Shown here: in pieces, positions 1-41,207 of the stretch
How positions within the stretch are numbered: position 1 is the first letter of the stretch
Layout of the letters: each line of letters starts with the position of its first letter
From: Setophaga petechia
Lineage: Eukaryota; Chordata; Aves; Passeriformes; Parulidae
DNA length: 64,000 nucleotides
Direction: 5' to 3'
NCBI GenBank assembly: GCA_024362935.1
Contig: JANCRA010000061.1
Span: forward strand, 2,976,001 to 3,040,000
Position numbers and translations under genes: made by a program
Notes under the pieces: model-generated
Database searches by the model: none
What the model was told of the DNA's origin: nothing
The model's input: only the letters and a program-made list of their open reading frames with translations

Positions 1-588
1 TGAGGGACCTTCAGGCAGACTTCCATCAACACCTGCATGACAGGATTCAGCACAAGGGCTGCTTCAATGTCAAACATCCCCTCGCTGCATCGAAGGCCTT
101 TACTTACCAGAGAGAGTGACGCTTTGATCTTGCGGTTTGTTGGCCTGTGGTTACGCTAGGAGGAGAAGGCCTGTTTATTTTCGTTTTTTTCCAGCAAGCA
201 AAGATGCTTCTGCACAACATTCCCTGCCCTTTTGCAGCTGTGGATGGGATTTTGCTCCAGTTTAAATTTTCCACGTTTGCAGCAGCTGTAGCAAAGGCAT
301 TGCTGTCGCTTTCCTAGTTCTCCATTTCAGCGCTTGCGAGCACTAAAAGCTCTGTTTTTCTGAAACGACCCTGCTTACTGATGGCAGCCAGGGAGAAAAA
401 TGAACTACATATGCATCTAGAGTTCTGTTGCACTGGCCTATTCTAATTTGGTGGCTGTGACTTAGAACCCCTCTGTCACTATGAAATGTTATAGGATCTC
501 CTTAGAAGATGTGGTGGTAGATGTGAAAAGAAATGAGGTTCTACATGCTAGGAAATGGCCTGTCCCTCATGCTCCACTCTTCTCACAG

Positions 589-714
589 ATGCCTGAACCA
601 AGAGCTGTCTCTCCCCTGGCTCCCGCTGCTCCTGGAGAAGAAGCCAAAGAGGAGCAAAGTGAGGTTATTGAGCGCCAGCCTCCATCAGTGGACCCATCAC
701 AATGTTCTGCACCT
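589..714 (+). CDS. Repeated 42-codon exon, copy 1 (putative N-terminal exon of the kinase gene)
   Basis: This 126-bp block is open, starts right after an AG acceptor (581-588) and ends at a GTAAGT donor (715-720). Both boundaries are phase 0, so any number of copies could be spliced in series without shifting the frame. The encoded segment opens with MPEPRAVSPLAPAAPG, then a short acidic run (EEAKEEQSEV), then a second proline patch (RQPPSVDP). Its proline-rich and acidic character resembles the unstructured N-terminal half of group I PAKs, but I see no CRIB motif. Copy 1 has Glu at residue 17. Splicing into the kinase gene at 15.4-25.1 kb is an inference from strand, phase and proximity. Confidence 0.55.
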
Positions 715-2353
715 GTAAGTGCCAGTTGTGTGTGGTGCTGCGTTTAGTGCAAGGCAGAGCTGCAAGTTTTGGAGCAGCCAGCACTTTGCTGTTGCTGGCT
801 GAGGATGCTGGGTGCTGCAGTCCTGGCAGGAGCTCGGGATTTCCCGCAGGCAGCGCCCACAGAACTTGGCCTTGGAGCTGTCACGTTGCGGCAGCAAAGG
901 GCCGGTGCCTCTGGGAGAGCATGTGGCTGCTTGGCTCAGGGAAGCTCTATCTCTTGGCTTCTGCAGTGCTATGGCCTAGGGCAAAGCAGGTAGTTCTGGA
1001 GGTGCCAGGCCTTGGTTTGTTTCTTTTCCCTTTTTGGAAAGGTGTGTTTTCCTTGTGGAAGCGGCCTGCACTTTCCTTGAGTAGTTCTTCACTTGTACAG
1101 TGTGTTTTGGGCCAGCTGTCTTTTGGCTTTTGAGAAGCTGCAAGGGCAGGACTGTGTTGTCCACGTCGCTATGGGGGCCATTCTTGTCCCGCGAGGCCCA
1201 AGAAACGAAGTGCGGAGTTGCAAAGCCTTCTTGTGAGGCCAAAAGCAGAAGCAGACAGATTCTGTTGCTGCAGATTTTGGTGAAGACTGAAGCTTTGGCA
1301 AGTTCCTTGGAGCCTGGAGTGGGAGGGAAGCTGCGAGTCCTTGACCGCTGTCTTGTGTTGCTCGGAAGAGGAAGGCCATCTTGCAATGGTGCCTGCTGGA
1401 TCTGAAGTGAAATAGGCCCCTTTGTGGCTGAGGAGCTGCGTGAGCCAGAAGGCCACAGAACTGGCGGCCTTGAGCAGATGAAGATGAGGCAGGGTGTGGC
1501 CAGGTGGCCAAGAAGGCCAAGGGCATGGTGGCCTGTGTCAGCAGCAGTGGGGCAGCAGGAGCAGGGCAGTGAGCATGGCCCTGTGCTGGGCAGCGCTGCG
1601 GCCACAGCTGGAGCGCGGTGTGCACTTGTGGGCCCCTGGCAAGCAGAAAGTCATGGAGGGGCTGCAGCGTCTGCACAGAAGGACAGGGGAGCAGGGGAAG
1701 GGGGGGCATCACAAGGCCAGTGAGGAGGTGCTGAAGGAGCTTTAGCCTGGACATTGGAAGGCTCCTGAGGGACCTTCAGGCAGACTTCCATCAACACCTG
1801 CATGACAGGATTCAGCACAAGGGCTGCTTCAATGTCAAACATCCCCTCGCTGCATCGAAGGCCTTTACTTACCAGAGAGAGTGACGCTTTGATCTTGCGG
1901 TTTGTTGGCCTGTGGTTACGCTAGGAGGAGAAGGCCTGTTTATTTTCGTTTTCTTCCAGCAAGCAAAGATGCTTCTGCACAACATTCCCTGCCCTTTTGC
2001 AGCTGTGGATGGGATTCTGCTCCAGTTTAAATTTTCCACGTCTGCAGCAGCTGTAGCAAAGGCATTGCTGTCGCTTTCCTAGTTCTCCATTTCAGCGCTT
2101 GCAAGCACTAAAAGCTCTGTTTTTCTGAAACGACCCTGCTTACTGATGGCAGCCAGGGAGAAAAATGAACTACATATGCATCTAGAGTTCTGTTGCACTG
2201 GCCTATTCTAATTTGGTGGCTGTGACTTAGAACCCCTCTGTCACTATGAAATGTTATAGGATCTCCTTAGAAGATGTGGTGGTAGATGTGAAAAGAAATG
2301 AGGTTCTACATGCTAGGAAATGGCCTGTCCCTCATGCTCCACTCTTCTCACAG

Positions 2354-2479
2354 ATGCCTGAACCAAGAGCTGTCTCTCCCCTGGCTCCCGCTGCTCCTGG
2401 ACAAGAAGCCAAAGAGGAGCAAAGTGAGGTTATTGAGCGCCAGCCTCCATCAGTGGACCCATCACAATGTTCTGCACCT
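2354..2479 (+). CDS. Repeated 42-codon exon, copy 2
   Basis: Identical to copy 1 except for a single G-to-C change that makes residue 17 Gln. The acceptor and GTAAGT donor are intact and both boundaries are phase 0. Confidence 0.55.
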
Positions 2480-4118
2480 GTAAGTGCCAGTTGTGTGTGG
2501 TGCTGCGTTTAGTGCAAGGCAGAGCTGCAAGTTTTGGAGCAGTCAGCACTTTGCTGTTGCTGGCTGAGGATGCTGGGTGCTGCAGTCCTGGCAGGAGCTC
2601 GGGATTTCCCGCAGGCAGCGCCCACAGAACTTGGCCTTGGAGCTGTCACGTTGCGGCAGCAAAGGGCTGGTGCCTCTGGGAGAGCATGTGGCTGCTTGGC
2701 TCAGGGAAGCTCTATCTCTTGGCTTCTGCAGTGCTATGGCCTAGGGCAAAGCAGGTAGTTCTGGAAGTGCCAGGCCTTGGTTTGTTTGCTTTCTCTTTTT
2801 GGAAAGGTGTGTTTTCCTTGTGGAAGCGGCCTGCACTTTCCTTGAGTAGTTCTTCACTTGTACAGTGTGTTTTGGGCCAACTGTCTTTTGGCTTTTGAGA
2901 AGCTGCAAGGGCAGGACTGTGTTGTCCACGTCGCTATGGGGGCCATTCTTGTCCCGTGAGGCCCAAGAAACGAAGTGCGGAGTTGCAAAGCCTTCTTGTG
3001 AGGCCAAAAGCAGAAGCAGACAGAGTCTGTTGCTGCAGATTTCGGTGAAGACTGAAGCTTTGGCAAGTGCCTTGGAGCCTGGAGTGGGAGGGAAGCTGCG
3101 AGTCCTCGACCGCTGTCTTGTGTTGCTCGGAAGAGGAAGGCCATCTTGCAATGGTGCCTGCTTGATCTGAAGTGAAATAGGCCCCTTTGTGGCTGAGGAG
3201 CTGCGTGAGCCAGAAGGCCGCAGAGCTGGCGGCCTTGAGCAGATGAAGATGAGGCAGGGTGTGGCCAGGTGGCCAAGAAGGCCAAGGGCATGGTGGCCTG
3301 TGTCAGCAGCAGTGGGGCAGCAGGAGCAGGGCAGTGAGCGTGGCCCTGTGCTGGGCAGCGCTGCGGCCACAGCTGGAGCGCTGTGTGCACTTGTGGGCCC
3401 CTGGCAAGCAGAAAGTCATGGAGGGGCTGCAGCGTCTGCACAGAAGGACAGGGGAGCCGGGGAAGGGGGGGCATCACAAGGCCAGTGAGGAGGTGCTGAA
3501 GGAGCTTTAGCCTGGACATTGGAAGGCTCCTGAGGGGCCTTCAGGCAGACTTCCATCAACACCTGCATGACAGGATTCAGCACAAGGGCTGCTTCAATGT
3601 CAAACATCCCCTCGCTGCATCGAAGGCCTTTACTTACCAGAGAGAGTGACGCTTTGATCTTGCGGTTTGTTGGCCTGTGGTTTTGCTAGGAGGAGAAGGC
3701 CTGTTTATTTTCGTTTTTTTCCAGCAAGCAAAGATGCTTCTGCACAACATTCCCTGCCCTTTTGCAGCTGTGGATGGGATTCTGCTCCAGTTTAAATTTT
3801 CCACGTTTGCAGCAGCTGTAGCAAAGGCATTGCTGTCGCTTTCCTAGTTCTCCATTTCAGCGCTTGCGAGCACTAAAAGCTCTGTTTTTCTGAAACGACC
3901 CTGCTTACTGATGGCAGCCAGGGAGAAAAATGAACTACATATGCATCTAGAGTTCTGTTGCACTGGCCTATTCTAATTTGGTGGCTGTGACTTAGAACCC
4001 CTCTGTCACTATGAAATGTTATAGGATCTCCTTAGAAGATGTGGTGGTAGATGTGAAAAGAAATGAGGTTCTACATGCTAGGAAATGGCCTGTCCCTCAT
4101 GCTCCACTCTTCTCACAG

Positions 4119-4244
4119 ATGCCTGAACCAAGAGCTGTCTCTCCCCTGGCTCCCGCTGCTCCTGGACAAGAAGCCAAAGAGGAGCAAAGTGAGGTTATTG
4201 AGCGCCAGCCTCCATCAGTGGACCCATCACAATGTTCTGCACCT
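4119..4244 (+). CDS. Repeated 42-codon exon, copy 3
   Basis: Gln-17 version with intact splice signals. The sequence 3' of this exon is nearly identical to that following copy 5, part of the two-unit duplication described in the findings. Confidence 0.55.
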
Positions 4245-5883
4245 GTAAGTGCCAGTTGTGTGTGGTGCTGTGTTTAGTGCAAGGCAGAGCTGCAAGTTTT
4301 GGAGCAGCCAGCACTTTGCTGTTGCTGGCTGAGGATGCTGGGTGCTGCAGTCCTGGCAGGAGCTCGGGATTTCCCGCAGGCAGCGCCCACAGAACTTGGC
4401 CTTGGAGCTGTCACGTTGCGGCAGCAAAGGGCCGGTGCCTCTGGGAGAGCATGTGGCTGCTTGGCTCAGGGAAGCTCTATCTCTTGGCTTCTGCAGTGCT
4501 ATGGCCTAGGGCAAAGTAGGTAGTTCTGGAGGTGCCAGGCCTTGGTTTGTTTCTTTTCCCTTTTTGGAAAGGTGTGTTTTCCTTGTGGAAGCGGCCTGCA
4601 CTTTCCTTGAGTAGTTCTTCACTTGTACAGTGTGTTTTGGGCCAGCTGTCTTTTGGCTTTTGAGAAGCTGCAAGGGCAGGACTGTGTTGTCCACGTCGCT
4701 ATGGGGGCCATTCTTGTCCCGCGAGGCCCAAGAAACGAAGTGCGGAGTTGCAAAGCCTTCTTGTGAGGCCAAAAGCAGAAGCAGACAGATTCTGTTGCTG
4801 CAGATTTCGGTGAAGACTGAAGCTTTGGCAAGTGCCTTGGAGCCTGGAGTGGGAGGGAAGCTGCGAGTCCTCGACCGCTGTCTTGTGTTGCTCGGAAGAG
4901 GAAGGCCATCTTGCAATGGTGCCTGCTGGATCTGAAGTGAAATAGGCCCCTTTGTGGCTGAGGAGCTGCGTGAGCCAGAAGGCCACAGAACTGGCGGCCT
5001 TGAGCAGATGAAGATGAGGCAGGGTGTGGCCAGGTGGCCAAGAAGGCCAAGGGCATGGTGGCCTGTGTCAGCAGCAGTGGGGCAGCAGGAGCAGGGCAGT
5101 GAGCGTGGCCCTGTGCTGGGCAGCGCTGCGGCCACAGCTGGAGCGCGGTGTGCACTTGTGGGCCCCTGGCAAGCAGAAAGTCATGGAGGGGCTGCAGCGT
5201 CTGCACAGAAGGACAGGGGAGCAGGGGAAGGGGGGGCATCACAAGGCCAGTGAGGAGGTGCTGAAGGAGCTTTAGCCTGGACATTGGAAGGCTCCTGAGG
5301 GACCTTCAGGCAGACTTCCATCAACACCTGCATGACAGGATTCAGCACAAGGGCTGCTTCAATGTCAAACATCCCCTCGCTGCATCGAAGGCCTTTACTT
5401 ACCAGAGAGAGTGATGCTTTGATCTTGCGGTTTGTTGGCCTGTGGTTTTGCTAGGAGGAGAAGGCCTGTTTATTTTCGTTTTTTTCCAGCAAGCAAAGAT
5501 GCTTCTGCACAACATTCCCTGCCCTTTTGCAGCTGTGGATGGGATTCTGCTCCAGTTTAAATTTTCCACGTTTGCAGCAGCTGTAGCAAAGGCATTGCTG
5601 TCGCTTTCCTAGTTCTCCATTTCAGCGCTTGCGAGCACTAAAAGCTCTGTTTTTCTGAAACGACCCTGCTTACTGATGGCAGCCAGGGAGAAAAATGAAC
5701 TACATATGCATCTAGAGTTCTGTTGCACTGGCCTATTCTAATTTGGTGGCTGTGACTTAGAACCCCTCTGTCACTATGAAATGTTATAGGATCTCCTTAG
5801 AAGATGTGGTGGTAGATGTGAAAAGAAATGAGGTTCTACATGCTAGGAAATGGCCTGTCCCTCATGCTCCACTCTTCTCACAG

Positions 5884-6009
5884 ATGCCTGAACCAAGAGC
5901 TGTCTCTCCCCTGGCTCCCGCTGCTCCTGGACAAGAAGCCAAAGAGGAGCAAAGTGAGGTTATTGAGCGCCAGCCTCCATCAGTGGACCCATCACAATGT
6001 TCTGCACCT
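5884..6009 (+). CDS. Repeated 42-codon exon, copy 4
   Basis: Gln-17 version with intact acceptor and GTAAGT donor. Its flanks pair with those of copy 6. Confidence 0.55.
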
Positions 6010-7648
6010 GTAAGTGCCAGTTGTGTGTGGTGCTGCGTTTAGTGCAAGGCAGAGCTGCAAGTTTTGGAGCAGCCAGCACTTTGCTGTTGCTGGCTGAGGA
6101 TGCTGGGTGCTGCAGTCCTGGCAGGAGCTCGGGATTTCCCGCAGGCAGCGCCCACAGAACTTGGCCTTGGAGCTGTCACGTTGCGGCAGCAAAGGGCCGG
6201 TGCCTCTGGGAGAGCATGTGGCTGCTTGGCTCAGGGAAGCTCTATCTCTTGGCTTCTGCAGTGCTATGGCCTAGGGCAAAGTAGGTAGTTCTGGAGGTGC
6301 CAGGCCTTGGTTTGTTTCTTTTCCCTTTTTGGAAAGGTGTGTTTTCCTTGTGGAAGCGGCCTGCACTTTCCTTGAGTAGTTCTTCACTTGTACAGTGTGT
6401 TTTGGGCCAGCTGTCTTTTGGCTTTTGAGAAGCTGCAAGGGCAGGACTGTGTTGTCCACGTCGCTATGGGGGCCATTCTTGTCCCGCGAGGCCCAAGAAA
6501 CGAAGTGCGGAGTTGCAAAGCCTTCTTGTGAGGCCAAAAGCAGAAGCAGACAGATTCTGTTGCTGCAGATTTTGGTGAAGACTGAAGCTTTGGCAAGTTC
6601 CTTGGAGCCTGGAGTGGGAGGGAAGCTGCGAGTCCTCGACCGCTGTCTTGTGTTGCTCGGAAGAGGAAGGCCATCTTGCAATGGTGCCTGCTGGATCTGA
6701 AGTGAAATAGGCCCCTTTGTGGCTGAGGAGCTGCGTGAGCCAGAAGGCCACAGAACTGGCGGCCTTGAGCAGATGAAGATGAGGCAGGGTGTGGCCAGGT
6801 GGCCAAGAAGGCCAAGGGCATGGTGGCCTGTGTCAGCAGCAGTGGGGCAGCAGGAGCAGGGCAGTGAGCGTGGCCCTGTGCTGGGCAGCGCTGCGGCCAC
6901 AGCTGGAGCGCGGTGTGCACTTGTGGGCCCCTGGCAAGCAGAAAGTCATGGAGGGGCTGCAGCGTCTGCACAGAAGGACAGGGGAGCCGGGGAAGGGGGG
7001 GCATCACAAGGCCAGTGAGGAGGTGCTGAAGGAGCTTTAGCCTGGACATTGGAAGGCTCCTGAGGGACCTTCAGGCAGACTTCCATCAACACCTGCATGA
7101 CAGGATTCAGCACAAGGGCTGCTTCAATGTCAAACATCCCCTCGCTGCATCGAAGGCCTTTACTTACCAGAGAGAGTGACGCTTTGATCTTGCGGTTTGT
7201 TGGCCTGTGGTTACGCTAGGAGGAGAAGGCCTGTTTATTTTCGTTTTCTTCCAGCAAGCAAAGATGCTTCTGCACAACATTCCCTGCCCTTTTGCAGCTG
7301 TGGATGGGATTCTGCTCCAGTTTAAATTTTCCACGTTTGCAGCAGCTGTAGCAAAGGCATTGCTGTCGCTTTCCTAGTTCTCCATTTCAGCGCTTGCAAG
7401 CACTAAAAGCTCTGTTTTTCTGAAACGACCCTGCTTACTGATGGCAGCCAGGGAGAAAAATGAACTACATATGCATCTAGAGTTCTGTTGCACTGGCCTA
7501 TTCTAATTTGGTGGCTGTGACTTAGAACCCCTCTGTCACTATGAAATGTTATAGGATCTCCTTAGAAGATGTGGTGGTAGATGTGAAAAGAAATGAGGTT
7601 CTACATGCTAGGAAATGGCCTGTCCCTCATGCTCCACTCTTCTCACAG

Positions 7649-7774
7649 ATGCCTGAACCAAGAGCTGTCTCTCCCCTGGCTCCCGCTGCTCCTGGACAAG
7701 AAGCCAAAGAGGAGCAAAGTGAGGTTATTGAGCGCCAGCCTCCATCAGTGGACCCATCACAATGTTCTGCACCT
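7649..7774 (+). CDS. Repeated 42-codon exon, copy 5
   Basis: Gln-17 version with intact splice signals. The downstream spacer carries a private T-to-A change near 8114 not seen in the other copies. Confidence 0.55.
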
Positions 7775-9413
7775 GTAAGTGCCAGTTGTGTGTGGTGCTG
7801 TGTTTAGTGCAAGGCAGAGCTGCAAGTTTTGGAGCAGCCAGCACTTTGCTGTTGCTGGCTGAGGATGCTGGGTGCTGCAGTCCTGGCAGGAGCTCGGGAT
7901 TTCCCGCAGGCAGCGCCCACAGAACTTGGCCTTGGAGCTGTCACGTTGCGGCAGCAAAGGGCCGGTGCCTCTGGGAGAGCATGTGGCTGCTTGGCTCAGG
8001 GAAGCTCTATCTCTTGGCTTCTGCAGTGCTATGGCCTAGGGCAAAGTAGGTAGTTCTGGAGGTGCCAGGCCTTGGTTTGTTTCTTTTCCCTTTTTGGAAA
8101 GGTGTGTTTTCCTAGTGGAAGCGGCCTGCACTTTCCTTGAGTAGTTCTTCACTTGTACAGTGTGTTTTGGGCCAGCTGTCTTTTGGCTTTTGAGAAGCTG
8201 CAAGGGCAGGACTGTGTTGTCCACGTCGCTATGGGGGCCATTCTTGTCCCGCGAGGCCCAAGAAACGAAGTGCGGAGTTGCAAAGCCTTCTTGTGAGGCC
8301 AAAAGCAGAAGCAGACAGATTCTGTTGCTGCAGATTTCGGTGAAGACTGAAGCTTTGGCAAGTGCCTTGGAGCCTGGAGTGGGAGGGAAGCTGCGAGTCC
8401 TCGACCGCTGTCTTGTGTTGCTCGGAAGAGGAAGGCCATCTTGCAATGGTGCCTGCTGGATCTGAAGTGAAATAGGCCCCTTTGTGGCTGAGGAGCTGCG
8501 TGAGCCAGAAGGCCACAGAACTGGCGGCCTTGAGCAGATGAAGATGAGGCAGGGTGTGGCCAGGTGGCCAAGAAGGCCAAGGGCATGGTGGCCTGTGTCA
8601 GCAGCAGTGGGGCAGCAGGAGCAGGGCAGTGAGCGTGGCCCTGTGCTGGGCAGCGCTGCGGCCACAGCTGGAGCGCGGTGTGCACTTGTGGGCCCCTGGC
8701 AAGCAGAAAGTCATGGAGGGGCTGCAGCGTCTGCACAGAAGGACAGGGGAGCAGGGGAAGGGGGGGCATCACAAGGCCAGTGAGGAGGTGCTGAAGGAGC
8801 TTTAGCCTGGACATTGGAAGGCTCCTGAGGGACCTTCAGGCAGACTTCCATCAACACCTGCATGACAGGATTCAGCACAAGGGCTGCTTCAATGTCAAAC
8901 ATCCCCTCGCTGCATCGAAGGCCTTTACTTACCAGAGAGAGTGATGCTTTGATCTTGCGGTTTGTTGGCCTGTGGTTTTGCTAGGAGGAGAAGGCCTGTT
9001 TATTTTCGTTTTTTTCCAGCAAGCAAAGATGCTTCTGCACAACATTCCCTGCCCTTTTGCAGCTGTGGATGGGATTCTGCTCCAGTTTAAATTTTCCACG
9101 TTTGCAGCAGCTGTAGCAAAGGCATTGCTGTCGCTTTCCTAGTTCTCCATTTCAGCGCTTGCGAGCACTAAAAGCTCTGTTTTTCTGAAACGACCCTGCT
9201 TACTGATGGCAGCCAGGGAGAAAAATGAACTACATATGCATCTAGAGTTCTGTTGCACTGGCCTATTCTAATTTGGTGGCTGTGACTTAGAACCCCTCTG
9301 TCACTATGAAATGTTATAGGATCTCCTTAGAAGATGTGGTGGTAGATGTGAAAAGAAATTAGGTTCTACATGCTAGGAAATGGCCTGTCCCTCATGCTCC
9401 ACTCTTCTCACAG

Positions 9414-9539
9414 ATGCCTGAACCAAGAGCTGTCTCTCCCCTGGCTCCCGCTGCTCCTGGACAAGAAGCCAAAGAGGAGCAAAGTGAGGTTATTGAGCGC
9501 CAGCCTCCATCAGTGGACCCATCACAATGTTCTGCACCT
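9414..9539 (+). CDS. Repeated 42-codon exon, copy 6
   Basis: Gln-17 version; the exon itself is open. A private G-to-T change at about 9360 creates an in-frame TAG upstream of the acceptor. It therefore interrupts only the intronic read-through frame and not the exon, which agrees with the exon boundary placed at 9414. Confidence 0.55.
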
Positions 9540-11178
9540 GTAAGTGCCAGTTGTGTGTGGTGCTGCGTTTAGTGCAAGGCAGAGCTGCAAGTTTTGGAGC
9601 AGCCAGCACTTTGCTGTTGCTGGCTGAGGATGCTGGGTGCTGCAGTCCTGGCAGGAGCTCGGGATTTCCCGCAGGCAGCGCCCACAGAACTTGGCCTTGG
9701 AGCTGTCACGTTGCGGCAGCAAAGGGCCGGTGCCTCTGGGAGAGCATGTGGCTGCTTGGCTCAGGGAAGCTCTATCTCTTGGCTTCTGCAGTGCTATGGC
9801 CTAGGGCAAAGTAGGTAGTTCTGGAGGTGCCAGGCCTTGGTTTGTTTCTTTTCCCTTTTTGGAAAGGTGTGTTTTCCTTGTGGAAGCGGCCTGCACTTTC
9901 CTTGAGTAGTTCTTCACTTGTACAGTGTGTTTTGGGCCAGCTGTCTTTTGGCTTTTGAGAAGCTGCAAGGGCAGGACTGTGTTGTCCACGTCGCTATGGG
10001 GGCCATTCTTGTCCCGCGAGGCCCAAGAAACGAAGTGCGGAGTTGCAAAGCCTTCTTGTGAGGCCAAAAGCAGAAGCAGACAGATTCTGTTGCTGCAGAT
10101 TTTGGTGAAGACTGAAGCTTTGGCAAGTTCCTTGGAGCCTGGAGTGGGAGGGAAGCTGCGAGTCCTCGACCGCTGTCTTGTGTTGCTCGGAAGAGGAAGG
10201 CCATCTTGCAATGGTGCCTGCTGGATCTGAAGTGAAATAGGCCCCTTTGTGGCTGAGGAGCTGCGTGAGCCAGAAGGCCACAGAACTGGCGGCCTTGAGC
10301 AGATGAAGATGAGGCAGGGTGTGGCCAGGTGGCCAAGAAGGCCAAGGGCATGGTGGCCTGTGTCAGCAGCAGTGGGGCAGCAGGAGCAGGGCAGTGAGCA
10401 TGGCCCTGTGCTGGGCAGCGCTGCGGCCACAGCTGGAGCGCGGTGTGCACTTGTGGGCCCCTGGCAAGCAGAAAGTCATGGAGGGGCTGCAGCGTCTGCA
10501 CAGAAGGACAGGGGAGCCGGGGAAGGGGGGGCATCACAAGGCCAGTGAGGAGGTGCTGAAGGAGCTTTAGCCTGGACATTGGAAGGCTCCTGAGGGACCT
10601 TCAGGCAGACTTCCATCAACACCTGCATGACAGGATTCAGCACAAGGGCTGCTTCAATGTCAAACATCCCCTCGCTGCATCGAAGGCCTTTACTTACCAG
10701 AGAGAGTGACGCTTTGATCTTGCGGTTTGTTGGCCTGTGGTTACGCTAGGAGGAGAAGGCCTGTTTATTTTCGTTTTCTTCCAGCAAGCAAAGATGCTTC
10801 TGCACAACATTCCCTGCCCTTTTGCAGCTGTGGATGGGATTCTGCTCCAGTTTAAATTTTCCACGTTTGCAGCAGCTGTAGCAAAGGCATTGCTGTCGCT
10901 TTCCTAGTTCTCCATTTCAGCGCTTGCAAGCACTAAAAGCTCTGTTTTTCTGAAACGACCCTGCTTACTGATGGCAGCCAGGGAGAAAAATGAACTACAT
11001 ATGCATCTAGAGTTCTGTTGCACTGGCCTATTCTAATTTGGTGGCTGTGACTTAGAACCCCTCTGTCACTATGAAATGTTATAGGATCTCCTTAGAAGAT
11101 GTGGTGGTAGATGTGAAAAGAAATGAGGTTCTACATGCTAGGAAATGGCCTGTCCCTCATGCTCCACTCTTCTCACAG

Positions 11179-11304
11179 ATGCCTGAACCAAGAGCTGTCT
11201 CTCCCCTGGCTCCCGCTGCTCCTGGAGAAGAAGCCAAAGAGGAGCAAAGTGAGGTTATTGAGCGCCAGCCTCCATCAGTGGACCCATCACAATGTTCTGC
11301 ACCT
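11179..11304 (+). CDS. Repeated 42-codon exon, copy 7
   Basis: Glu-17 version, like copies 1 and 8, with intact acceptor and donor. The downstream spacer has a private A-to-G change near 11506. Confidence 0.55.
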
Positions 11305-12943
11305 GTAAGTGCCAGTTGTGTGTGGTGCTGTGTTTAGTGCAAGGCAGAGCTGCAAGTTTTGGAGCAGCCAGCACTTTGCTGTTGCTGGCTGAGGATGCTG
11401 GGTGCTGCAGTCCTGGCAGGAGCTCGGGATTTCCCGCAGGCAGCGCCCACAGAACTTGGCCTTGGAGCTGTCACGTTGCGGCAGCAAAGGGCCGGTGCCT
11501 CTGGGGGAGCATGTGGCTGCTTGGCTCAGGGAAGCTCTATCTCTTGGCTTCTGCAGTGCTATGGCCTAGGGCAAAGCAGGTAGTTCTGGAAGTGCCAGGC
11601 CTTGGTTTGTTTGCTTTCTCTTTTTGGAAAGGTGTGTTTTCCTTGTGGAAGCGGCCTGCACTTTCCTTGAGTAGTTCTTCACTTGTACAGTGTGTTTTGG
11701 GCCAACTGTCTTTTGGCTTTTGAGAAGCTGCAAGGGCAGGACTGTGTTGTCCACGTCGCTATGGGGGCCATTCTTGTCCCGCGAGGCCCAAGAAACGAAG
11801 TGCGGAGTTGCAAAGCCTTCTTGTGAGGCCAAAAGCAGAAGCAGACAGATTCTGTTGCTGCAGATTTCGGTGAAGACTGAAGCTTTGGCAAGTGCCTTGG
11901 AGCCTGGAGTGGGAGGGAAGCTGCGAGTCCTCGACCGCTGTCTTGTGTTGCTCAGAAGAGGAAGGCCATCTTGCAATGGTGCCTGCTGGATCTCAAGTGA
12001 AATAGGCCCCTTTGTGGCTGAGGAGCTGCGTGAGCCAGAAGGCCGCAGAGCTGGCGGCCTTGAGCAGATGAAGATGAGGCAGGGTGTGGCCAGGTGGCCA
12101 AGAAGGCCAAGGGCATGGTGGCCTGTGTCAGCAGCAGTGGGGCAGCAGGAGCAGGGCAGTGAGCGTGGCCCTGTGCTGGGCAGCGCTGCGGCCACAGCTG
12201 GAGCGCTGTGTGCACTTGTGGGCCCCTGGCAAGCAGAAAGTCATGGAGGGGCTGCAGCGTCTGCACAGAAGGACAGAGGAGCCGGGGAAGGGGGGGCATC
12301 ACAAGGCCAGTGAGGAGGTGCTGAAGGAGCTTTAGCCTGGACATTGGAAGGCTCCTGAGGGGCCTTCAGGCAGACTTCCATCAACACCTGCATGACAGGA
12401 TTCAGCACAAGGGCTGCTTCAATGTCAAACATCCCCTCGCTGCATCGAAGGCCTTTACTTACCAGAGAGGGTGACGCTTTGATCTTGCGGTTTGTTGGCC
12501 TGTGGTTTTGCTAGGAGGAGAAGGCCTGTTTATTTTTGTTTTTTTCCAGCAAGCAAAGATGCTTCTGCACAACATTCCCTGCCCTTTTGCAGCTGTGGAT
12601 GGGATTCTGCTCCAGTTTAAATTTTCCACGTTTGCAGCAGCTGTAGCAAAGGCATTGCTGTCGCTTTCCTAGTTCTCCATTTCAGCGCTTGCGAGCACTA
12701 AAAGCTCTGTTTTTCTGAAACGACCCTGCTTACTGATGGCAGCCAGGGAGAAAAATGAACTACATATGCATCTAGAGTTCTGTTGCACTGGCCTATTCTA
12801 ATTTGGTGGCTGTGACTTAGAACCCCTCTGTCACTATGAAATGTTATAGGATCTCCTTAGAAGATGTGGTGGTAGATGTGAAAAGAAATGAGGTTCTACA
12901 TGCTAGGAAATGGCCTGTCCCTCATGCTCCACTCTTCTCACAG

Positions 12944-13069
12944 ATGCCTGAACCAAGAGCTGTCTCTCCCCTGGCTCCCGCTGCTCCTGGAGAAGAAGCC
13001 AAAGAGGAGCAAAGTGAGGTTATTGAGCGCCAGCCTCCATCAGTGGACCCATCACAATGTTCTGCACCT
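12944..13069 (+). CDS. Repeated 42-codon exon, copy 8 (nearest the kinase exons)
   Basis: Glu-17 version with intact splice signals. It is the last complete copy before the array decays, and lies 2.35 kb upstream of the first confident coiled-coil exon at 15420. That exon also starts in phase 0, so direct splicing between them would keep the frame. Confidence 0.55.
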
Positions 13070-14119
13070 GTAAGTGCCAGTTGTGTGTGGTGCTGTGTTT
13101 AGTGCAAGGCAGAGCTGCAAGTTTTGGAGCAGTCAGCACTTTGCTGTTGCTGGCTGAGGATGCTGGGTGCTGCAGTCCTGGCAGGAGCTCGGGATTTCCC
13201 GCAGGCAGCGCCCACAGAACTTGGCCTTGGAGCTGTCACGTTGCGGCAGCAAAGGGCTGGTGCCTCTGGGAGAGCATGTGGCTGCTTGGCTCAGGGAAGC
13301 TCTATCTCTTGGCTTCTGCAGTGCTATGGCCTAGGGCAAAGCAGGTAGTTTTGGAGGTGCCAGGGCTTTCTTTCTTCATTTTCCCTTTTTGGAGATGTGC
13401 GTTTTCCTTGTGGAAGCTGTCTGCACTTTCCCTGAATAGTTCTTCACTTGTACAGTCTCATTTGGGCCAGCTGTCATTGCCTTTGGTAAGCTAGAAGGGC
13501 AGGATTGTGTTGTCTATGCAGCTGTGGGGGGCCATTCCTGTCCCACGTGGCCGAAGGTACAAAGTGCAGAGGTCCGAAGCCTTCTTGTGAGGCCAAAAGC
13601 AGAAGCAGACAGATTCTGTTGCTGCAGATTTTGATGCAGTCTCCTGCTTTGGCAAGTTCCTTGGAGCCTGGAGTGGGAGGGAAGCTGCGAGTCTTTGACT
13701 GCTGTCTTGTGTTGCTCGGAAGAGGAAGGCCATCTTGCAATGGTACCTGCTGGATCTGAAGTGAAATAGGCCCCTTTGTGGCTGAGGAGCTGCGTGAGCC
13801 AGAAGGCCGCAGAGCTGGCGGCCTTGAGCAGATGAAGATGAGGCAGGGTGTGGCCAGGTGGCCAAGAAGGCCAAGGGCATGGTGGCCTGTGTCAGCAGCA
13901 GTGGGGCAGCAGGAGCAGGGCAGTGAGTGTTGCCCTGTGCTGGGCAGCGCTGCAACCACAGCTGGAGCGCTGTGTGCACTTGTGGGCCCCTGGCAAGCAG
14001 AAAGTCATGGAGGGGCTGCAGCGTGTGCACAGAAGGACAGGGGAGCTGGGCCAGGGGGTGCAGCACAAGGCCAGTGAGGAGGTGCTGAGGGATCTTTAGC
14101 CTGGACAATGGGAGGCTAC

Positions 14120-14285
14120 TGAGGGATAGTCTGGCCGACTTCCATCAATGCCTGCATGACAGTGCTCAGCCAAGCATCCCATCACTCCATCGAAGGGCTT
14201 TTGACATTGAAGTTGGTGACACTTACGTCGTCTGGTTTGTTGGTTTTCTGTGAGCAGGGGATCTGTTCCTTTTCTTTTGTTTCAC
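14120..14285 (+). repeat. Decayed partial ninth repeat unit
   Basis: The start of another unit is recognisable (TGAGGG, the CTTCCATCAA block, GCCTGCATGACAG, and a TCGAAGGGCTTTTGACATTGAA-like stretch), but with many substitutions and small deletions. It stops well before the point where the exon would lie. It marks the ancestral right boundary of the array. Confidence 0.75.
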
Positions 14286-15419: not shown

Positions 15420-17382
15420 CTGCCTGAGAGGCTGTTGGAGCTTCAGTCCCAGATGGCCCCTGACTGTAGGGCCAGGGTCACTTTGGAATCTGTGCCTCCC
15501 CTTGAACACAGAATGACCCAGCAGAGCAGCAGCACAGGGCTTTGGGAACGTGTGAGCCCAGCAGTCTTTGAGTCTCGGCCCACAAAGCTCATATGGGAAG
15601 TTGAAACCCGTCTTCTCTTGTTTTCTGTGCAGGTGCTTCTAGAGAGAGAGCAGGAGCAGACTGCCTCATCAGAGATGCCATGCCCGACTCAGGGAGAGCT
15701 GTTCCCAGCCCGAGAGCAGGAAGAGCAGCTCAGGCAGCAGGTGGAAGAGCCACAGGAGAATGGCCAGGTAAGCCTGACTGGCCAGGTGACAGAGGGAAGG
15801 GCAGGAAGAGGGGCACAAACCAGAGCTCTTGGGACTGAGGAGGCCAGGAGTCCCACAGGCACTGCAAGCACAGAGCCTTGGAATGTGCAGAGATCAGCCC
15901 TGGGACAGGAGGGTTACATTGGAAACAGATGTGGGTAGGGAAGCAGAAAGAATAAATAATGACTGAATAAATGTGATTTTGAGGCTGCAAGAGAAATAAG
16001 CTGAGCCTGATGGCAGCTCCCAGTCACTTGCTCTGCATTTGTGTGTACAGAAGATCAAGGCAGAGCCACAAGCAGAGCTGCCTGAAGCTCAGAGTGCCAT
16101 CACGGCAGTGAAGAGGAGGAACAAGGATGACATGAGAAGAATTCAAGAGGAGAATCTCGATCAGCAGAGGGGCGATCAACAAAATCAGGTGAGTGAAAGA
16201 GTGGTAGCCACTCCATTCATGAAACATCCTCTCACTTGTTTTTTAGAGAACTTGAAGGAACAGCTGGATGCAGAGCTTCAGATAGCTCACAGCGTGGTCA
16301 AGGCAAAGCAGAAGACGCTGGAGGAAGAAATGAAAATTATCAGAGAGAAAGCTAATCGCCTCCCTCAAGCTCTAGAAAAGCAAGTGAGTGAAGGAGGGAT
16401 GCAGTCACTGCAGTCACCAAACTGGTGGTTTCTGCCCTTCTTGCCTTGCCAGTGCACAGCAGCAGGGAGTGGGGCCATGCCTCTGAGTGCCATCCTGCTG
16501 TGGTCTGTATCACAGCTGCTCTGATGGACACTTCCTGGGCTGCCGAATAGCCTTGTTTCTTGAGATGTTTTTACAGTGGAACGTGGTGACCCAGATGGAG
16601 GATTGAAACAAGCTGTCTGTATCCTTTGTCAATCTGTTCTTTGCCTTTCCTCACAGTTGATGACTCCTGGCTGACAGGGACAAGCTGTAGTGTCTGACTG
16701 CTTTGTTCTGTTTCATTTGAGGTGCGAGTGTTGACATCTTACCAGGCAGCCTGCGAAGACTTCCAGCGAATGTCTGGCAATGAAGAGCCTCAGCTTAGGA
16801 GTGAGGCACAGGTACCATCCCCACCAGAAATGCTACAGGTTGAGCAAGACCTTAAGATGGTGCAGGAAAAGAGGACACAGTGGGAGGAGGCAGAACATTT
16901 GAACAAGCTCCAAGTATGTCTGCAGTCCTTGGTAGGGGAAAGGAATCCTTGAGAGGAAGTAGAATGGTGATTGTGGCAGTCATCTTTCTGAAAATGCACG
17001 AAAACCAAACACGAATCTGGCCATGAACCCAAGTAAAACTTGCCTTTGGTTTTGACCCATCCAGTTTGAGAAGTGGACATCAGAAAAAAAACCATTGAAG
17101 AGCCCTGCATGTGGCTGACAGCGCCTTCCTAGGGGCTTGCATTTCAATAGGGGATCTCAGGGTCATCTCTGCCAGCCACCTTTCTGACATCAACTCATTT
17201 TTTTTCCCAGATCTACATGGGCTCTGTCACCAAACCTGCTGCAGCAGCAGCAGCAGCATTGTCTAAAGGAGCCTTATCTCCCCGACCTGAGAAGTGGAGC
17301 CGGGGCAGTTTGTTCACCTCCTGCACTGACCCAGCTGCTGCTCAGCAACAGGAGATTGAGGGTGACTCCCTGGAGCTGCTGA
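15420..17382 (+). other. N-terminal coiled-coil and linker exons of the PAK-like kinase
   Basis: Five consecutive exons of 44, 45, 46, 45 and 64 codons, all phase 0-0, encode highly charged Glu/Gln/Lys-rich segments such as [15 protein letters not shown] and [19 protein letters not shown]. This is the pattern of a long coiled coil built by duplication of about 45-codon exons. I could not assign it to a family; rootletin-like or CEP-like rods are loose comparisons only. The acceptor of the exon at 16249 was chosen two bases downstream of a first AG because only that keeps phase 0. The sixth exon (17211-17382) is a linker with a poly-Ala run, leading through EGDSLELL into the segment that aligns with PAK sequence just before the glycine loop. 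Confidence 0.65.
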
Positions 17383-20300
17383 GTACGTCTGCTGTATTTC
17401 TTGTCTGAGGGACAGTGTTTTGTGCGCAGGCGTCAACATAGCTGTAACAAATGTTTCTCCTGAGTTTGGTGTCATGGGGACAATTAGGGACATTTCTCCA
17501 CAGGAACTGCTGTAGAAAAACAGTCTCTGTGCTGACCACAGAGCTGTCTGCCTGGTTGTTGTTTTTATTACCCAGCCGACCAAAATGGACTCAGAGCTTC
17601 AGGCACTGGGGCTGCCTTTTGTATCTCCTGGAAGCTGCAATCTCTGCTTTAAAGTCAGCATCTTGCATTTTGTTTCCCTCAGGGAAATTGGTGAACCCCA
17701 TGGAAAATCCCCTGATGAAATACACAGATCTGGAACATATTGGCAGCGGGTAAGTCCAACCACAGTTACTTCTACATAACCATGGGCCAGGTGTTTTTCT
17801 GGTGGAATGTCTATCCAGTGTGAAGTCAGGCCAGCTGCAAAGATGTTCACACTGGGGATAGATTGTCCCATCTCTCAATGCTGCTCAGAATTTGTGAGTG
17901 GGCTCAGAAGGCATTGTCAGAGACACCTCCATGCCGCTGAGGTTTTGACTGCCTCAAGGAACAGGACGTTGAAGGTCTCCTTGCCACCCAAGTGTGAAAC
18001 AGTTCTGTGTTAATTTCTTTAATATTTTTGTATATCTCTAAATCATACAGCCACACTAATGAAAGGGGAAGAATCTTGCTTGCCTGAAAGAGCAACCTAC
18101 TCCCTGATAGCTGTGAGACACCAGTTCTCAGGAACATTTCTTTCCAAGAGTTTGCTGTAGGAAATACTCTGTGATCAGGATTGAAACTGCACAGTTTAGA
18201 AACTGAAGCCTGAGATGAAAGAAGCAGCTGTCTTAAGGAGCTGAGGCAGTAAACCCTAACGCTTCAGGATCCGGCCCAGTGCCCATGCACTTGAGAGGAA
18301 AATGCATCTTCTCTCTTCTGGCAGAACCCTCCTGCATCCTGCAGGTTTTAGGCATTTACAGCACAGATCTCCTGTGTGGGCTGGCTTTCTCTGCAAGGTC
18401 TAAATGGCTTCTCCTTTCTCTGCTTCTGTTTTGTTTCTAGGACTTTTGGCGATGTTTGCAGAGCACTTATGAATGCCACAGGAAGAGAGGTAAATGTCAA
18501 CAGGTCCTGCAAACTCTGCTGCTCTTGAGGGGCTTTCCCCTCTGGTGTGAGCTGTGGCTGGAGCTTTGGGCAGAGCTGTGCTGAAAAGGCACAAGAAGCA
18601 CAGACTGGTGCCAGCCTGCAAAATACATTTGGGACTTTGTCCTCCTCAGCTGCTGGAAGGAAGGCATGGAGGGCAGCGGTTCCTTTCAGACAAGGACGCG
18701 CTCACTCGCTCTCCATTGCTAAAACAAAGGCGGTGCCTTCAAGCACCTCACGGCTCTTTGCGGCTACAGCTTCAGGGTCCTGAATTCTCATTTCTGGCTG
18801 CCAGCAAATCCATCTGAAAGTTACTGGTAGTTCCTTGGCCACTTGCAGTGCTGCACTTGGGAACTGCACGTAGGGAGAGATCTGCAAGGCGTCCCTGAAA
18901 GCCCTAAGCCCTGCCCATAGCCCAAGATGTATCCACAGAGTATTAAGGCATGGATTACTACTTCTGATTCCCAAACAAAGCAGCAGAGATTGTGGTCAGA
19001 GCTTTGTGGGTGATAGCTGAGACACCGCTGTTACCAAGTGGACAAGGCAAAATGTCAGTGGCCCCACGTGTCCTGTAACTGGCCCCCAAGGGAGCAGAGA
19101 AATGGGCTGTTGGAATGTCAGTTCCTAATTACTGCAGTGCCGAATCACAAGGCAGTTTGGTACAGCTCAGCTGTGTCATTACAAAATCACTTGCTCCATG
19201 TGCATTGTGGTCTCTTGACACCAACTTCTCAAGATACTTATTTTCAATGTCATTTTAGGTGGCCATAAAGAAAATAGGTCTTCAAGGACTGAGGAAGAAG
19301 GAACTAAAAGTCAATGAACTTATGGTCATGAAAATGAATAGGAATCTCAACCTGGTCAACTATTTAGACAGGTGAGTTGTTCTGAATGTTTGTTTACATA
19401 TTGCAAACATGCAAGGTAAAATCCCACTTTTGTCAGTGGCAGAAAATAGAACTATAATTATAGGTTAATTATTATTGCTGTTTTCATCTCCAGCGGATAG
19501 GAAGAGAGTGCTTCTTATCTGCATGAGTCTTCTCTAACACACATAGTTTGAAAATTATTCAGAAACCTGCATCAGTCATATCTTACTAAATCAATAGCCT
19601 GTATGTTCACAGCCACCACTTTGTTTTGGGGCTTGATTTTATTCAAGTGTCTTTTTACGTCCGGGTAAACTAACATGGATTTTCCTTGGATTGTTTCCTC
19701 TCTTTTCCATTGCTTTGCATGCCAGGAAGACTAGGTGCATATTTCCAGAAACACACAGTGTGACAGGTTTTTTATCTCTTACTAAACTGCATTTTTTACT
19801 TGCTGCCCATCTAAGATATCTCTTTTTTCAGAGCTGTGCCTTTCTTCTTGAGACTGTACAGATTGCAAATAATGCACAGCCAAGAGGAAATGTCTATTCC
19901 TTTGATTCTGTCCTTGTCACAAAGGGACCTGGAAACAGGAATCAGTCAAGAAAACAACTCAGCCATGCATGTTCCACACCCTTGTTTCCTTCTTTCAGCT
20001 ACCTTGTGGGTGAGGAACTCTGGCTGGTTATGGAGTACATGGATGGAGGCGCCCTGAGCGATGTCACCAGCAAGACCTGCCTGTCTGAGGATGAGACAGC
20101 AGCCATTAGTCGGGAGGTCAGCAATCCCATCTGCGTTTCCAAGGGCTTGGTCAGGATTGTCTGCAAAAGAGGGGCTCAGGCCTGGAGTGATTTCATTTGC
20201 CAAGCTTTGTTTCCGTGTTGCTGGTATGCTATGGGCAAGTAAAAGCATCTCAAGTGAAAGGCCTGCCAGTGCCCCTGCATTCCCTGTACTCAGTGCCAGC

Positions 20301-23300
20301 ACTCTTATCTCCTGCTGTTGTACTTTTGCTCTGCCACTCATATTTGTATTTGCTGTTCTCCACCTTGCCTCTCTAAATGTTCGCCTGGAGTCTGTCTTCA
20401 CTGCATTCCTTGCCTGTGAAAGCAAAGGTGCTGGTGGCAGGATTTGAAACAAACAGCAAAGAAAAAGCAGCACATTTCTCACAGGCCTCAGCTGAAAAGG
20501 ACAGGAGTGCAGCCAAAATGCTCTTTGCTTCAGGAAGGTGACTGATGTGATACTTCCAAGCCTGTGCTGAGGCCAGCAATAAAATCTTTGTCATGCAACC
20601 TCCCACCCAAAAGTGATCTGCTTCACACCAAAGGGAGGGACTTTCCCTTCCTTGACAAAACCCCTCCTTTTTCCTCTGCATGGAAAAAGCACGTCCACTA
20701 CAGCAGGAGTCATCCTGGCTGGTTTGCAGGGCAGGATGTCTACAAGAGCAGGTGCTGTTGCTTTTTAAAAGCTGACGTGCCTTTCTTCAGAAAGGACCTG
20801 TTCTGCAAGTGTTTGAAGCAGCCAGCTCTTCCTCTCAGTGGTCATGACTGTTCTGCCATTACTCCCTATTCCCCTGGGGAGGGAATCTTTTGGAGCTGTT
20901 TCCTTTCTTGTATGATAAAATCACATCACTAATTTTTGTCCTTCTGTTCCTGTTTTCTCTCTCAGTGCCTGCAAGGACTGCATTTTCTTCATTCAAACAA
21001 CGTGATCCACCAAGATGTGAAGAGCAGAAACGTCCTTCTCAGAACTGATGGCTCTGTCAAGCTGGGTCAGTATATTCTTGGGCAGGTGCAGTGTTCCAGG
21101 GATGTGGCTGTAGGGCCACGTGGAGTGACAGCCAGCTCCCCAAAAATGGTGCTGGCGGCAGTGCAGGGCCCCCTACTGTGAGCTGAAGGCAGAGTTGCAA
21201 TGTGCACAGCGGTATAAGGAACCAGAAAAGGTCATGAGTGGCATTGTTCTGTGTGTGTCCCTTCCAGACAGAGGGAGCTACAATCTAAAGCTTCAGGGGA
21301 ATAAGGTCCACTGCGGTGAGCAGCGTTATAAAGCCTGGGATTTTTTGGAAGTGGCCAATTCCATACTCCCTTGGCTAAAGCCTGAAAGAAATCGAGGGTG
21401 GACAGTTCTCCAGGAGATTCAACAGCACATTCTTAGCCTGAGAGTGGGGAATTCTTCTGCTTGGTTTCCTAATTGGAGTTGGCTTTCATGGTTTGTTGTT
21501 TTCTCCGCAGCTGACTTTGGCCTCTTTGCTCAGCTCACCCCTGAGCAGAGCAGGTGGAGCTCTGTGGCCGGCTCTTCTGGGTGGATGGCACCTGAAGTGG
21601 TGACAGGTCAACCATATGGCCCCAAAGTGGACATATGGTCTTTTGGAATTGTGGGCATCGAAATGGTGGAACGAGAAGTTCCTTACTGGAATGCAACTCC
21701 TGTCTTGGTAAGCTACAAATACTCACTGATCTCACTGTCTTTCACACCTGTCCCATGTTGTGTGTGCCATTGGACAAAATCCCATTGGCATCTGCTGGCA
21801 CCACTTCCACCAAGATCCCCTTCTAAAAATGTCCCTGCAATCCATCAGCATCTGCTGTAGCTTTGGTTGCATCAGAAAGGGAAGTGGCAGTTCAGAAATC
21901 TTACCCGTTTAGAAATCTAACCAGTTCAGAAAGTTGCCATTTTGGCCTCCAGCCATGCCCGACATTTCTCATTTGCTTTTTGAACCATGTTGGATCTCTG
22001 TCTCTTAAGGACAGGAAGTTTTCAGTGAACGCTTGGATGTGTGATAAATATCTTTTGAAATAGATATTGAGTCTTCTCAGCTTTAGTTTTATAGATAAAG
22101 AAAAAGTGAAAAAGGAACAACCAGCAAAGCAATGCCCTAGTTTTGCTTTCTTTTCTCTTTTTAAACCACAGCTATTTTCCTCTATACTGTAGCATCTTTT
22201 CCAAATCCTGTGGGTCTTATAAACTTATCATGTGTGTGGGTGGCCTAGGTAAGTTTAGGATGTGTTTTTCTCCGACTACAGTTAGAATTGTATGCCAAAA
22301 TCTTGGCTGTTTCTTGGTACTTCAACAAGTTGATGATCTTGCAGGCAGGTGCCTGGGCTGGGATCCAACCTAGGCAGTTGACACTGGTGCTGTGTTTCTT
22401 TACCGCAGGAGCAGGGCCATCCCTGGCCTGCACAGTTCTAATGACAAGGGAGGACTCCAGCTCCCCACCATGGCCAGTGGCTGAGTACAGCTTCAGAGGC
22501 ACAGGATAAAACCCCCTTTGTGACCTCTGGTGGTGTGGGAAAAGGAAAGAAAGCTGTCCTAATTATTTGTACTCAAGGGGAGCGTGTTTGCTTTTTTAGA
22601 CTTGCAAATTTTCCTCTGGGTTGAAGAGGATAATAACAAAGCCTCTTTGGTCACTGTCTATTTCAGTGCCACCAGCACAGAGCTGTTAGTATTGTGATGG
22701 GCATTTTTATGGAGACCAGGCCGCAGCCTGGGGTCATGGAGATCATGCCAAACCTCCCATTTCTTACCCGACACTTTCTGCGATGGGCACACCTTTAATG
22801 CATTGACTTGAGTATCCAAATGAGCAGAGGGTGACCATAGGGATGACAGTTCTTCCTCTGATTGGACCATGAAATGGTTTTCTTTTGCCACATAAAGAAG
22901 CTGAAACTTGCAGCTGAGAGACAGAGCTGCAGGTGGCACTTGTTGTGTGTGCTCAAACATTTTCATCTCAATATATCTGTGCATGCATCTTAAAGCATCT
23001 GTGTTGAATATGAGATTCCAAATGTTTGTTTCTTTACCTGAGCAATACATAGTGGATTTCCTTTCTTTCCTTCCAATTCCCATTGTTTTCAAGAACAAAG
23101 CAAAAAGCTTGATTAATTTTGTTTTATGGCAGCTGTGCTTGAGGGACCAACAAGCACTGCAGAGATACTTTTGATGTACTAATCCTTGGAAAGAGTAGAG
23201 TTAGTATAGCACAGTCCCTCTTCCAAAAAGCCTCCCAAGCTGGTATGAATCCTCAGAGAAGGAAATGTGCTTTTGCTGATGTAGTTCCCACTAACTAGGT

Positions 23301-36044: not shown

Positions 36045-36229
36045 CTGAACAGCAACCTGAAACTGCTGTGAGCTGCTCCTGCCCTGCTGCACAACGACAC
36101 CCAGTGCACTTCCCATGGGGCAGAGGGACAGTGTGCAAACTAGGAGTCTGTGCTGCTTGTCTCCACATGGGCATAAATAACTCTCTCTAAAAGTACAAAT
36201 TTTCTTAAAAAATCAGCTTTTGTTCATGG

Positions 36230-36696
36230 TGTAATAAGTAGCAATATGTTTGTTCATTAATTAAATTAATAGCTGAATAATTCTTACAATATAAAAGCAA
36301 TAGCTAAATAGTTGAGATTGCTCGTGACTGTAACAATAGCCGACCTGGAAGAATTGCTGAGCTTGCAGAAACATATAGTGCTTAGAATTGCTAATCTTGC
36401 AGAAAATGTATAGTGCTTTGGAAACACATGGTTATAGTTATGTCCTATAAGAAAAAGTCCACCCAGCGAACAAAGCGGGCCCCCCCCTCTCCTTCAAGAC
36501 CACCAGAACAGGATACGTCATCCCGAGAGGAGAAGAAATAAAAGACCAGCCCCAGAAAGGGGGGTTGCGGACTTTAGAGAGCAGAGTTCTCTCAGTCCCC
36601 CCAGCGCTGAACTTTTGCTTGTCACTGCTTGCTTTATAATCAAATAAATTCTGATTGGAAAAAGAAATTTACATGGTAAGATTCTTCTTTATAACA
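36230..36696 (+). repeat. 5' LTR of the endogenous retrovirus
   Basis: Starts TGTAATAAGT and ends TTTATAACA. A TATAAAA box lies at 36290-36296 and an AATAAA polyA signal at 36537-36542, giving a conventional U3-R-U5 order. It differs from the 3' LTR at only about four or five positions, mostly in a C-run near 36480. Confidence 0.95.
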
Positions 36697-36698
36697 AA

Positions 36699-36716
36699 TG
36701 GTGCCGTGACTCGGAT
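36699..36716 (+). other. Primer binding site, tRNA-His type
   Basis: TGGTGCCGTGACTCGGAT begins 2 bp after the 5' LTR and is the reverse complement of the 3' end of vertebrate tRNA-His including CCA. It would prime minus-strand DNA synthesis. Confidence 0.9.
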
Positions 36717-38524: not shown

Positions 38525-38549
38525 GGATGAGAAAACGTTTAAAGAGGAT

Positions 38550-38552
38550 TAG
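38550..38552 (+). promoter_or_regulatory. Gag-pol UAG readthrough context
   Basis: In the frame that gag would have without its frameshift, the stop is TAG followed by GGAGGTCAAGGG. Pol continues from here in the same frame. This is the arrangement and immediate 3' context of gammaretroviral stop-codon readthrough. I did not verify a downstream pseudoknot. Confidence 0.65.
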
Positions 38553-41138: not shown

Positions 41139-41207
41139 CCAGTCGCCCTGGAGATCTACGGTTAACTCTTCAGAAGGCACAGAAGCCTGCGCCCGTGGGT
41201 AATGTGA

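What the first reader, a model, noticed from the sequence alone, without database searches (positions are those of the whole stretch)
1..14120. Tandem array of a phase 0-0 exon upstream of a kinase gene: a possible expandable protein repeat
Seen: eight 1765-bp units, each with an identical-length 126-bp open block between good splice sites, both ends phase 0, all eight open and all on the strand of the downstream kinase. Inference: splicing would add 42 residues (proline/acidic, SH3-ligand-like) per unit, so copy-number change would lengthen a disordered N-terminal region of a signalling kinase without breaking frame. I know of no described system of this kind in the PAK family.
Basis: partly seen in the sequence, partly recalled or inferred. 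Interest (0 to 1): 0.88.

Follow-up and report, generated by a model that had tools for sequence, protein, structure and literature searches.

The report
Expandable exon array in songbird kinase
In a songbird, the start of a PAK3-like kinase gene holds one small exon copied at least eight times in a row, and related songbird genes are predicted to encode anything from none to 12 such blocks, so the kinase seems to carry a tail whose length can change without breaking the protein; this was not checked in RNA.

Summary
Eight 1765-bp units fill window 1-14117; each has an identical-length 126-nt block, phase 0 at both ends, open, between AG and GT sites. Units 1-7 are at least 98.6% identical; unit 8 diverges after its first ~995 bases. 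The array runs off the window's left edge, so 8 is a minimum.

Songbird 'PAK 3-like' proteins carry this block before the same coiled-coil exons and kinase: 109 of 154 fetched proteins have at least one copy, 43 two or more, up to 12, mostly at 41-44-residue spacing. Blocks, downstream exons and kinase join into one open 871-residue frame ending in a stop.

Corrections: the next exon is 15633-15767, not 15420; the SH3-ligand reading fails (motifs in 3 and 24 of 213 units, none in the window block).

I read it as a whole-exon coding VNTR, like human LPA KIV-2, in a PAK3-derived kinase lacking the p21-binding domain. Not shown: a transcript joining several blocks, or variation between individuals. 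The one transcript-like relative I noticed (P0048) lacks the block. I found no description in the capped paper listings I saw.

The parts
1..14117 (+). Tandem array, eight 1765-bp units (intron-exon-intron), continuing beyond the left edge of the window
589..714 (+). Repeated 126-nt phase 0-0 exon, copy 1; further copies start at 2354, 4119, 5884, 7649, 9414, 11179 and 12944
12944..13069 (+). Copy 8 of the 126-nt exon, the one nearest the kinase
15633..15767 (+). Next exon (VLLEREQEQ..., phase 0-0), the one relatives join to the last block
16051..16383 (+). Coiled-coil exon, read through 16188 as in relatives
16722..16811 (+). Coiled-coil exon (donor at 16811; an alternative donor at 16913 fits some relatives)
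17211..17382 (+). Linker exon, leaves phase 1
17683..17749 (+). Kinase exon 1 (start of the glycine loop)
18441..18489 (+). Kinase exon 2
19259..19371 (+). Kinase exon 3 (VAIK lysine)
19999..20116 (+). Kinase exon 4
20966..21065 (+). Kinase exon 5 (catalytic loop HQD in place of HRD)
21511..21707 (+). Kinase exon 6 (DFG, APE)
23519..23656 (+). Kinase exon 7
25003..25098 (+). Last exon with stop codon

Best explanation
The window holds all but the 5' end of a songbird PAK3-like (PAK3L) gene, probably Z-linked. An early exon, with flanking intron, has been amplified into a tandem array of at least eight 1765-bp units. Because the exon is 126 nt with phase 0 at both ends, any number of copies can be spliced between a first exon (outside the window) and exon 15633-15767 in frame, each adding 42 Pro/Glu-rich residues. 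Unequal crossing over and gene conversion between units change the number and homogenise the units, so protein length drifts by whole blocks between paralogs and species. Shown by sequence: the array, frame and splice compatibility, an intact kinase frame, and block arrays in relatives' predicted proteins. Inferred: multi-block transcripts in this species, exchange as the mechanism, and a role as a flexible spacer between an N-terminal helical, possibly membrane-binding segment and the coiled-coil/kinase part. No p21-binding domain was found, so Rac/Cdc42 control of the ordinary PAK kind is unlikely.
For: Array and block. Relatives: 109 of 154 fetched proteins with at least one block, 43 with two or more, 11 with five or more, maximum 12; spacing mostly 44, 41 or 42. 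P0001 (Agelaius tricolor) matches the window block, then 15633-15767, then each later exon to the stop, in order. One open 871-residue frame. Kinase nearest PAK3 in the PDB. Whole-block differences between otherwise similar proteins: Ficedula P0094 has blocks 1-4, 11 and 12 of P0123; zebra finch P0057 lacks blocks matching 3-6 of P0079, with tails 96% identical over 349 aligned residues. Window units fail the four-gamete test at 49 of 190 informative site pairs, as exchange would give. Within-array block identity averages 0.77 against 0.48 between arrays.
Against: No RNA evidence for joined blocks. The relatives are mostly predicted models, and predictors omit exons with stops, which biases towards open blocks. 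45 of 154 fetched proteins have no block. The closest relatives in the tree (Agelaius, Camarhynchus) have one block or none. P0048, the one transcript-like record noticed, starts on a different first exon and lacks the block. A block's nearest neighbour lies in its own array in only 74 of 130 cases, ties counted as own, so homogenisation is incomplete in most relatives. The array's left end, the first exon and a promoter are outside the window.
Confidence: 0.78

Rival explanations
1. The block is a real exon of this gene, but mature transcripts use only one copy (or none, from an alternative first exon); the other copies are skipped and the array is neutral tandem duplication.
For: P0001 and P0002 have one block, P0005 and P0064 none. 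P0016, P0046 and P0048 start on other first exons without a block. The exon-side donor bases (CCT) are poor by consensus.
Against: Predicted proteins in Taeniopygia, Vidua, Passer, Ficedula, Oenanthe, Zonotrichia and Geothlypis hold 5-12 diverged but open blocks in series. Their divergence means each included copy stayed open, although prediction bias weakens this.
Confidence: 0.15
2. The locus is a non-functional or non-expressed PAK3L copy, so the array has no protein consequence here (overlaps with the other readings rather than excluding them).
For: PAK3L genes are very numerous: 200 copies on zebra finch Z (PMC13060935, passages read). HRD has become HQD and the activation segment has changed.
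Against: No frameshift or stop from the array to the final stop. VAIK, HxD, DFG and APE are kept. 89% identity to an Agelaius protein over the queried region. In zebra finch only 4 of 200 copies show frameshifts (same passages).
Confidence: 0.15
3. Assembly artefact: the unit was falsely repeated.
For: Units 4 and 6 differ at only 2 of 1765 sites. I had no reads to check depth.
Against: Units 1-7 carry 35 variable columns in mixed combinations, unit 8 has its own diverged half, and arrays of the same block occur in other species.
Confidence: 0.04
4. The block is a chance open frame in a satellite unrelated to the kinase.
For: 489 of 1639 windows of this length in the unit are open.
Against: Protein-level matches at up to 87.5% identity (over 32 residues) in the same position of the same gene family.
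Confidence: 0.01

Closest known systems
Songbird PAK3L (PAK3-like) gene family
   Same: PAK3-derived kinase lacking the PAK3 N-terminal regulatory exons (Kong et al. 2010, as reported in PMC13060935, passages read). Same exon order as 'PAK 3-like' database proteins.
   Different: The passages of PMC13060935 that I read, including those for the terms exon, N-terminal, intronic, tandem repeat and isoform, do not mention a repeated exon block. Kong et al. itself was not held.
Human LPA kringle IV-2 coding VNTR
   Same: Whole intron+exon units in tandem (5.6 kb, 1-40 per allele, PMC11462820, start of abstract in a listing); protein length changes by whole modules; 98-100% identity between KIV-2 exons (PMC7613587, passages).
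   Different: There each kringle has two exons (PMC7613587) and within-species variation is established. Here one 126-nt exon encodes a probably unfolded block upstream of a kinase, and variation between individuals is untested.
Group I PAK (PAK1-3)
   Same: Kinase domain: best PDB match PAK3, E 4.2e-95.
   Different: No p21-binding domain at E 0.01 in the window protein (15633 to the stop) or in three relatives; the N-terminus is replaced by a helix-predicted first exon (relatives), blocks and coiled coil.

Membership tests
Songbird PAK3L | Kinase domain closest to PAK3 | tested here: met
   PAK3 first among 2764 matched distinct sequences, PAK1 very close behind
Songbird PAK3L | Lacks the PAK3 N-terminal regulatory (p21-binding) part | tested here: met
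   kinase-type families only; the 5' end outside the window was not seen
Songbird PAK3L | Relatives in oscine birds with the same exon order | tested here: met
   that the named genera are oscine is recalled
Songbird PAK3L | Z linkage | tested here: inconclusive
   RIOK2 and MRPL50 lie in the window; that both are Z-linked in birds is recalled; the chromosome is not given
Group I PAK | p21-binding (CRIB/PBD) domain | tested here: not met
Whole-exon coding VNTR (LPA KIV-2 kind) | Tandem genomic units each holding intron and exon | tested here: met
Whole-exon coding VNTR (LPA KIV-2 kind) | Exon phases that let any number keep the frame | tested here: met
Whole-exon coding VNTR (LPA KIV-2 kind) | Copies joined in one mRNA | not testable with these tools
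   only predicted proteins of relatives
Whole-exon coding VNTR (LPA KIV-2 kind) | Copy number differs between individuals of one species | not testable with these tools
   only between models, paralogs and species
SH3-ligand repeat | [RK]xxPxxP or PxxPx[RK] in the block | tested here: not met
   absent from the window block; 3 and 24 of 213 blocks in relatives

The most novel reading that the evidence does not exclude
Songbird PAK3L kinases carry a population-polymorphic whole-exon length dial. An N-terminal helix (possibly a membrane anchor) and a string of up to 12 or more 41-44-residue blocks set the reach of a p21-independent, germline-expressed PAK. Block number, changing by unequal exchange on the Z chromosome, is a heritable and rapidly evolving trait of sperm or testis signalling.
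Probability: 0.2. Interest if true: 0.85.

Novelty: new variant of a known kind. Interest (0 to 1): 0.62.

Why it matters
PAK3L is a massively amplified songbird gene family whose function remains to be elucidated (200 copies on zebra finch Z, PMC13060935, passages). If its kinases also differ by whole-exon blocks, there are two layers of copy-number change, genes and exons, in one family with reported testis expression. Length would be an easily typed trait to test against sperm phenotypes and Z inversions. It would also add a kinase to the proteins sized by a whole-exon VNTR.

Tried and rejected
Exon at 15420-15549 as the joining exon: none of five relatives mapped matches it and its length is not a multiple of 3. 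Its splice scores are weak, but so are those of some accepted exons. SH3-ligand role: motifs not conserved. Selection on the block from window copies alone: too little variation. Full concerted evolution of blocks: only 74 of 130 blocks are nearest to their own array. A block remnant between the array and exon 15633: only weak hits, E 0.14 or worse. Tree: 42 relatives chosen by hand, 7 dropped because my start-motif search failed (P0121, P0020, P0039, P0031, P0041, P0095, P0129), 35 used plus the window; the window groups with Agelaius (83/46, weak) inside a five-row set with Camarhynchus (96/83). AlphaFold of P0062 is poor: mean pLDDT 42, 658 of 875 residues under 50. It shows no secondary structure in the block region and a helix at residues 2-35, but is not used as strong evidence, and no fold search was made. 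The own genome was sought with one unchanged request 11 times and never answered, so array length, first exon and other copies in this genome are unknown. Kong et al. 2010 was not held. In one search the script stopped at its last comparison (P0033/P0036 tails), which was therefore not made.

Full report
Observation. The first 14.1 kb of the window is eight head-to-tail units of 1765 bp. Tandem Repeats Finder did not list them; its longest period is 500. Units 1-7 differ pairwise at 2-24 of 1765 positions. Unit 8 is like them for about its first 995 bases, then diverges and ends at 14117. The array has no left end in the window. Only 1 of 35 variable columns of units 1-7 lies in the block, 2.5 expected, which says nothing about selection.

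The gene. Downstream on the same strand lies a kinase whose joined exons match PAK3 best in the PDB (E 4.2e-95), with PAK1 nearly equal. A protein search with the exons upstream of the kinase found 156 proteins, 120 listed; the organisms named there are, as I know the genera, all oscine birds, and many records are called 'serine/threonine-protein kinase PAK 3-like'. Mapping one of them (P0001, Agelaius tricolor) back by tblastn gives, in order: block, 15633-15767, 16051-16383, 16722-16811, 17211-17382, then the kinase exons to 25003-25098 with the stop. Blocks plus these exons read as one frame of 871 residues. The exon at 15420 is in none of the five relatives mapped; the joining exon is 15633-15767.

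The block in relatives. Blastp of the window block against the 120 relatives found it at up to 87.5% identity over 32 residues, typically near their N-termini. With a profile built from such matches, 109 of all 154 fetched proteins have at least one block: 66 one, 19 two, 11 three, 2 four, 4 five, 1 six, 2 seven, 2 nine, 1 eleven, 1 twelve; 45 have none. These are representatives of 90%-identity clusters chosen by similarity to the window, so the counts describe the sample, not birds. Of 117 spacings between successive blocks in the first 126 proteins, 60 are 44, 27 are 41 and 9 are 42 residues; some are far larger (201, 350, 552, 590), blocks not in tandem. Ficedula and Oenanthe arrays have 41, zebra finch and Vidua mostly 44, the window 42. 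Array lengths differ by whole blocks: Ficedula P0094 equals P0123 minus blocks 5-10 (matches of 98-100%), and in zebra finch P0057 matches blocks 1, 2, 7, 8 and 9 of P0079 (89-98%), with tails 96% identical over 349 aligned residues. These may be annotation variants or paralogs; either way whole blocks come and go in frame. In 33 of 38 proteins whose first block starts at residue 30-45, by my reading of the list, the block follows a similar ~39-residue first exon of moderate hydrophobicity. That exon was not found in the window (two queries).

How it likely works. The exon is phase-symmetric, so unequal exchange between units adds or removes 42 residues without touching the frame. Window units show mixed combinations of variants (49 of 190 informative site pairs fail the four-gamete test), as exchange or conversion would produce. 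The blocks are Pro/Glu-rich (9 Pro and 7 Glu of 42) and probably unfolded; the AlphaFold model of P0062 shows no secondary structure there, but its overall quality is poor. Canonical SH3 motifs are not conserved (3 and 24 of 213 units); PxxP is in 177 and [ST]P in 173 of 213, so proline-directed phosphorylation is a better guess, untested. Pfam at E 0.01 finds only kinase-type families in the window protein and three relatives, no p21-binding domain. I infer a flexible spacer between an N-terminal helix and the coiled-coil/kinase part.

Against. No RNA was available. The relatives are mostly models and predictors leave out broken exons. P0048, 589 residues on a contig of at most 2123 bases from source 'lgn' (I believe an archive of assembled reads; recalled), would have to be a spliced transcript or a retrocopy; it starts elsewhere and has no block. 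P0016, P0046 and P0004 also start on other first exons. So block-less forms are likely, and the array may be used only from an upstream promoter. The closest relatives in the tree, Agelaius and Camarhynchus, have one block or none, so either the array grew recently in the window's lineage or their models are short. Blocks are nearest to a block of their own array in 74 of 130 cases only.

Known or new. Amplified PAK3L genes on songbird Z are known: 200 copies in 10 clusters in zebra finch, testis and brain expression, no PAK3 regulatory exons (PMC13060935, passages read; it cites Kong et al. 2010, not held). That paper is the only one in the library with the word PAK3L. Its passages for exon, N-terminal, intronic, tandem repeat and isoform show no mention of exon blocks. 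The listings showed no description of a repeated exon in this family, but they are capped lists of titles and abstract beginnings (one search found no paper), and subscription papers are mostly not held. The block-bearing proteins themselves are already in public databases as unexplained predictions. The kind of thing is known from LPA KIV-2 (listing, passages). I therefore call it a new variant of a known kind.

Noticed in passing
36230-44833: An endogenous retrovirus: two ~470-bp terminal repeats 98.9% identical with a Gag p30 match in 37001-38521, so by inference a fairly recent insertion.
   Followed up: partly
52114-52620: Open frame for mitochondrial ribosomal protein mL50 (MRPL50), E 1.3e-41 to a solved chain.
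   Followed up: partly
55938-63089: RIOK2-like exons: Rio2_N match at 56553-56867; a first exon near 55956 is by eye, and an acidic frame at 62418-63089 may be another exon (no Pfam hit).
   Followed up: partly
35509-36048: Open frame resembling a solute-carrier (SLC22-type) membrane protein by eye and recall; Pfam found nothing in 35627-35980.
   Followed up: no
P0048, P0016, P0046, P0004 (relatives); window near 15304: Alternative starts that skip the block array (MLAVFHDAIPSLCQN, MELWDR, MFPPPEM, MFPSPDV), suggesting a second promoter in the family. By eye, MELWDR is also readable near window 15304, but without a GT donor right after it.
   Followed up: partly
N-termini of 33 of 38 relatives: A conserved ~39-residue hydrophobic and basic first exon (such as MIQQLAAAVVTVYGVTYSGYFLTHLARHIKHVF) before the blocks; possible membrane or mitochondrial anchor (helix).
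   Followed up: partly
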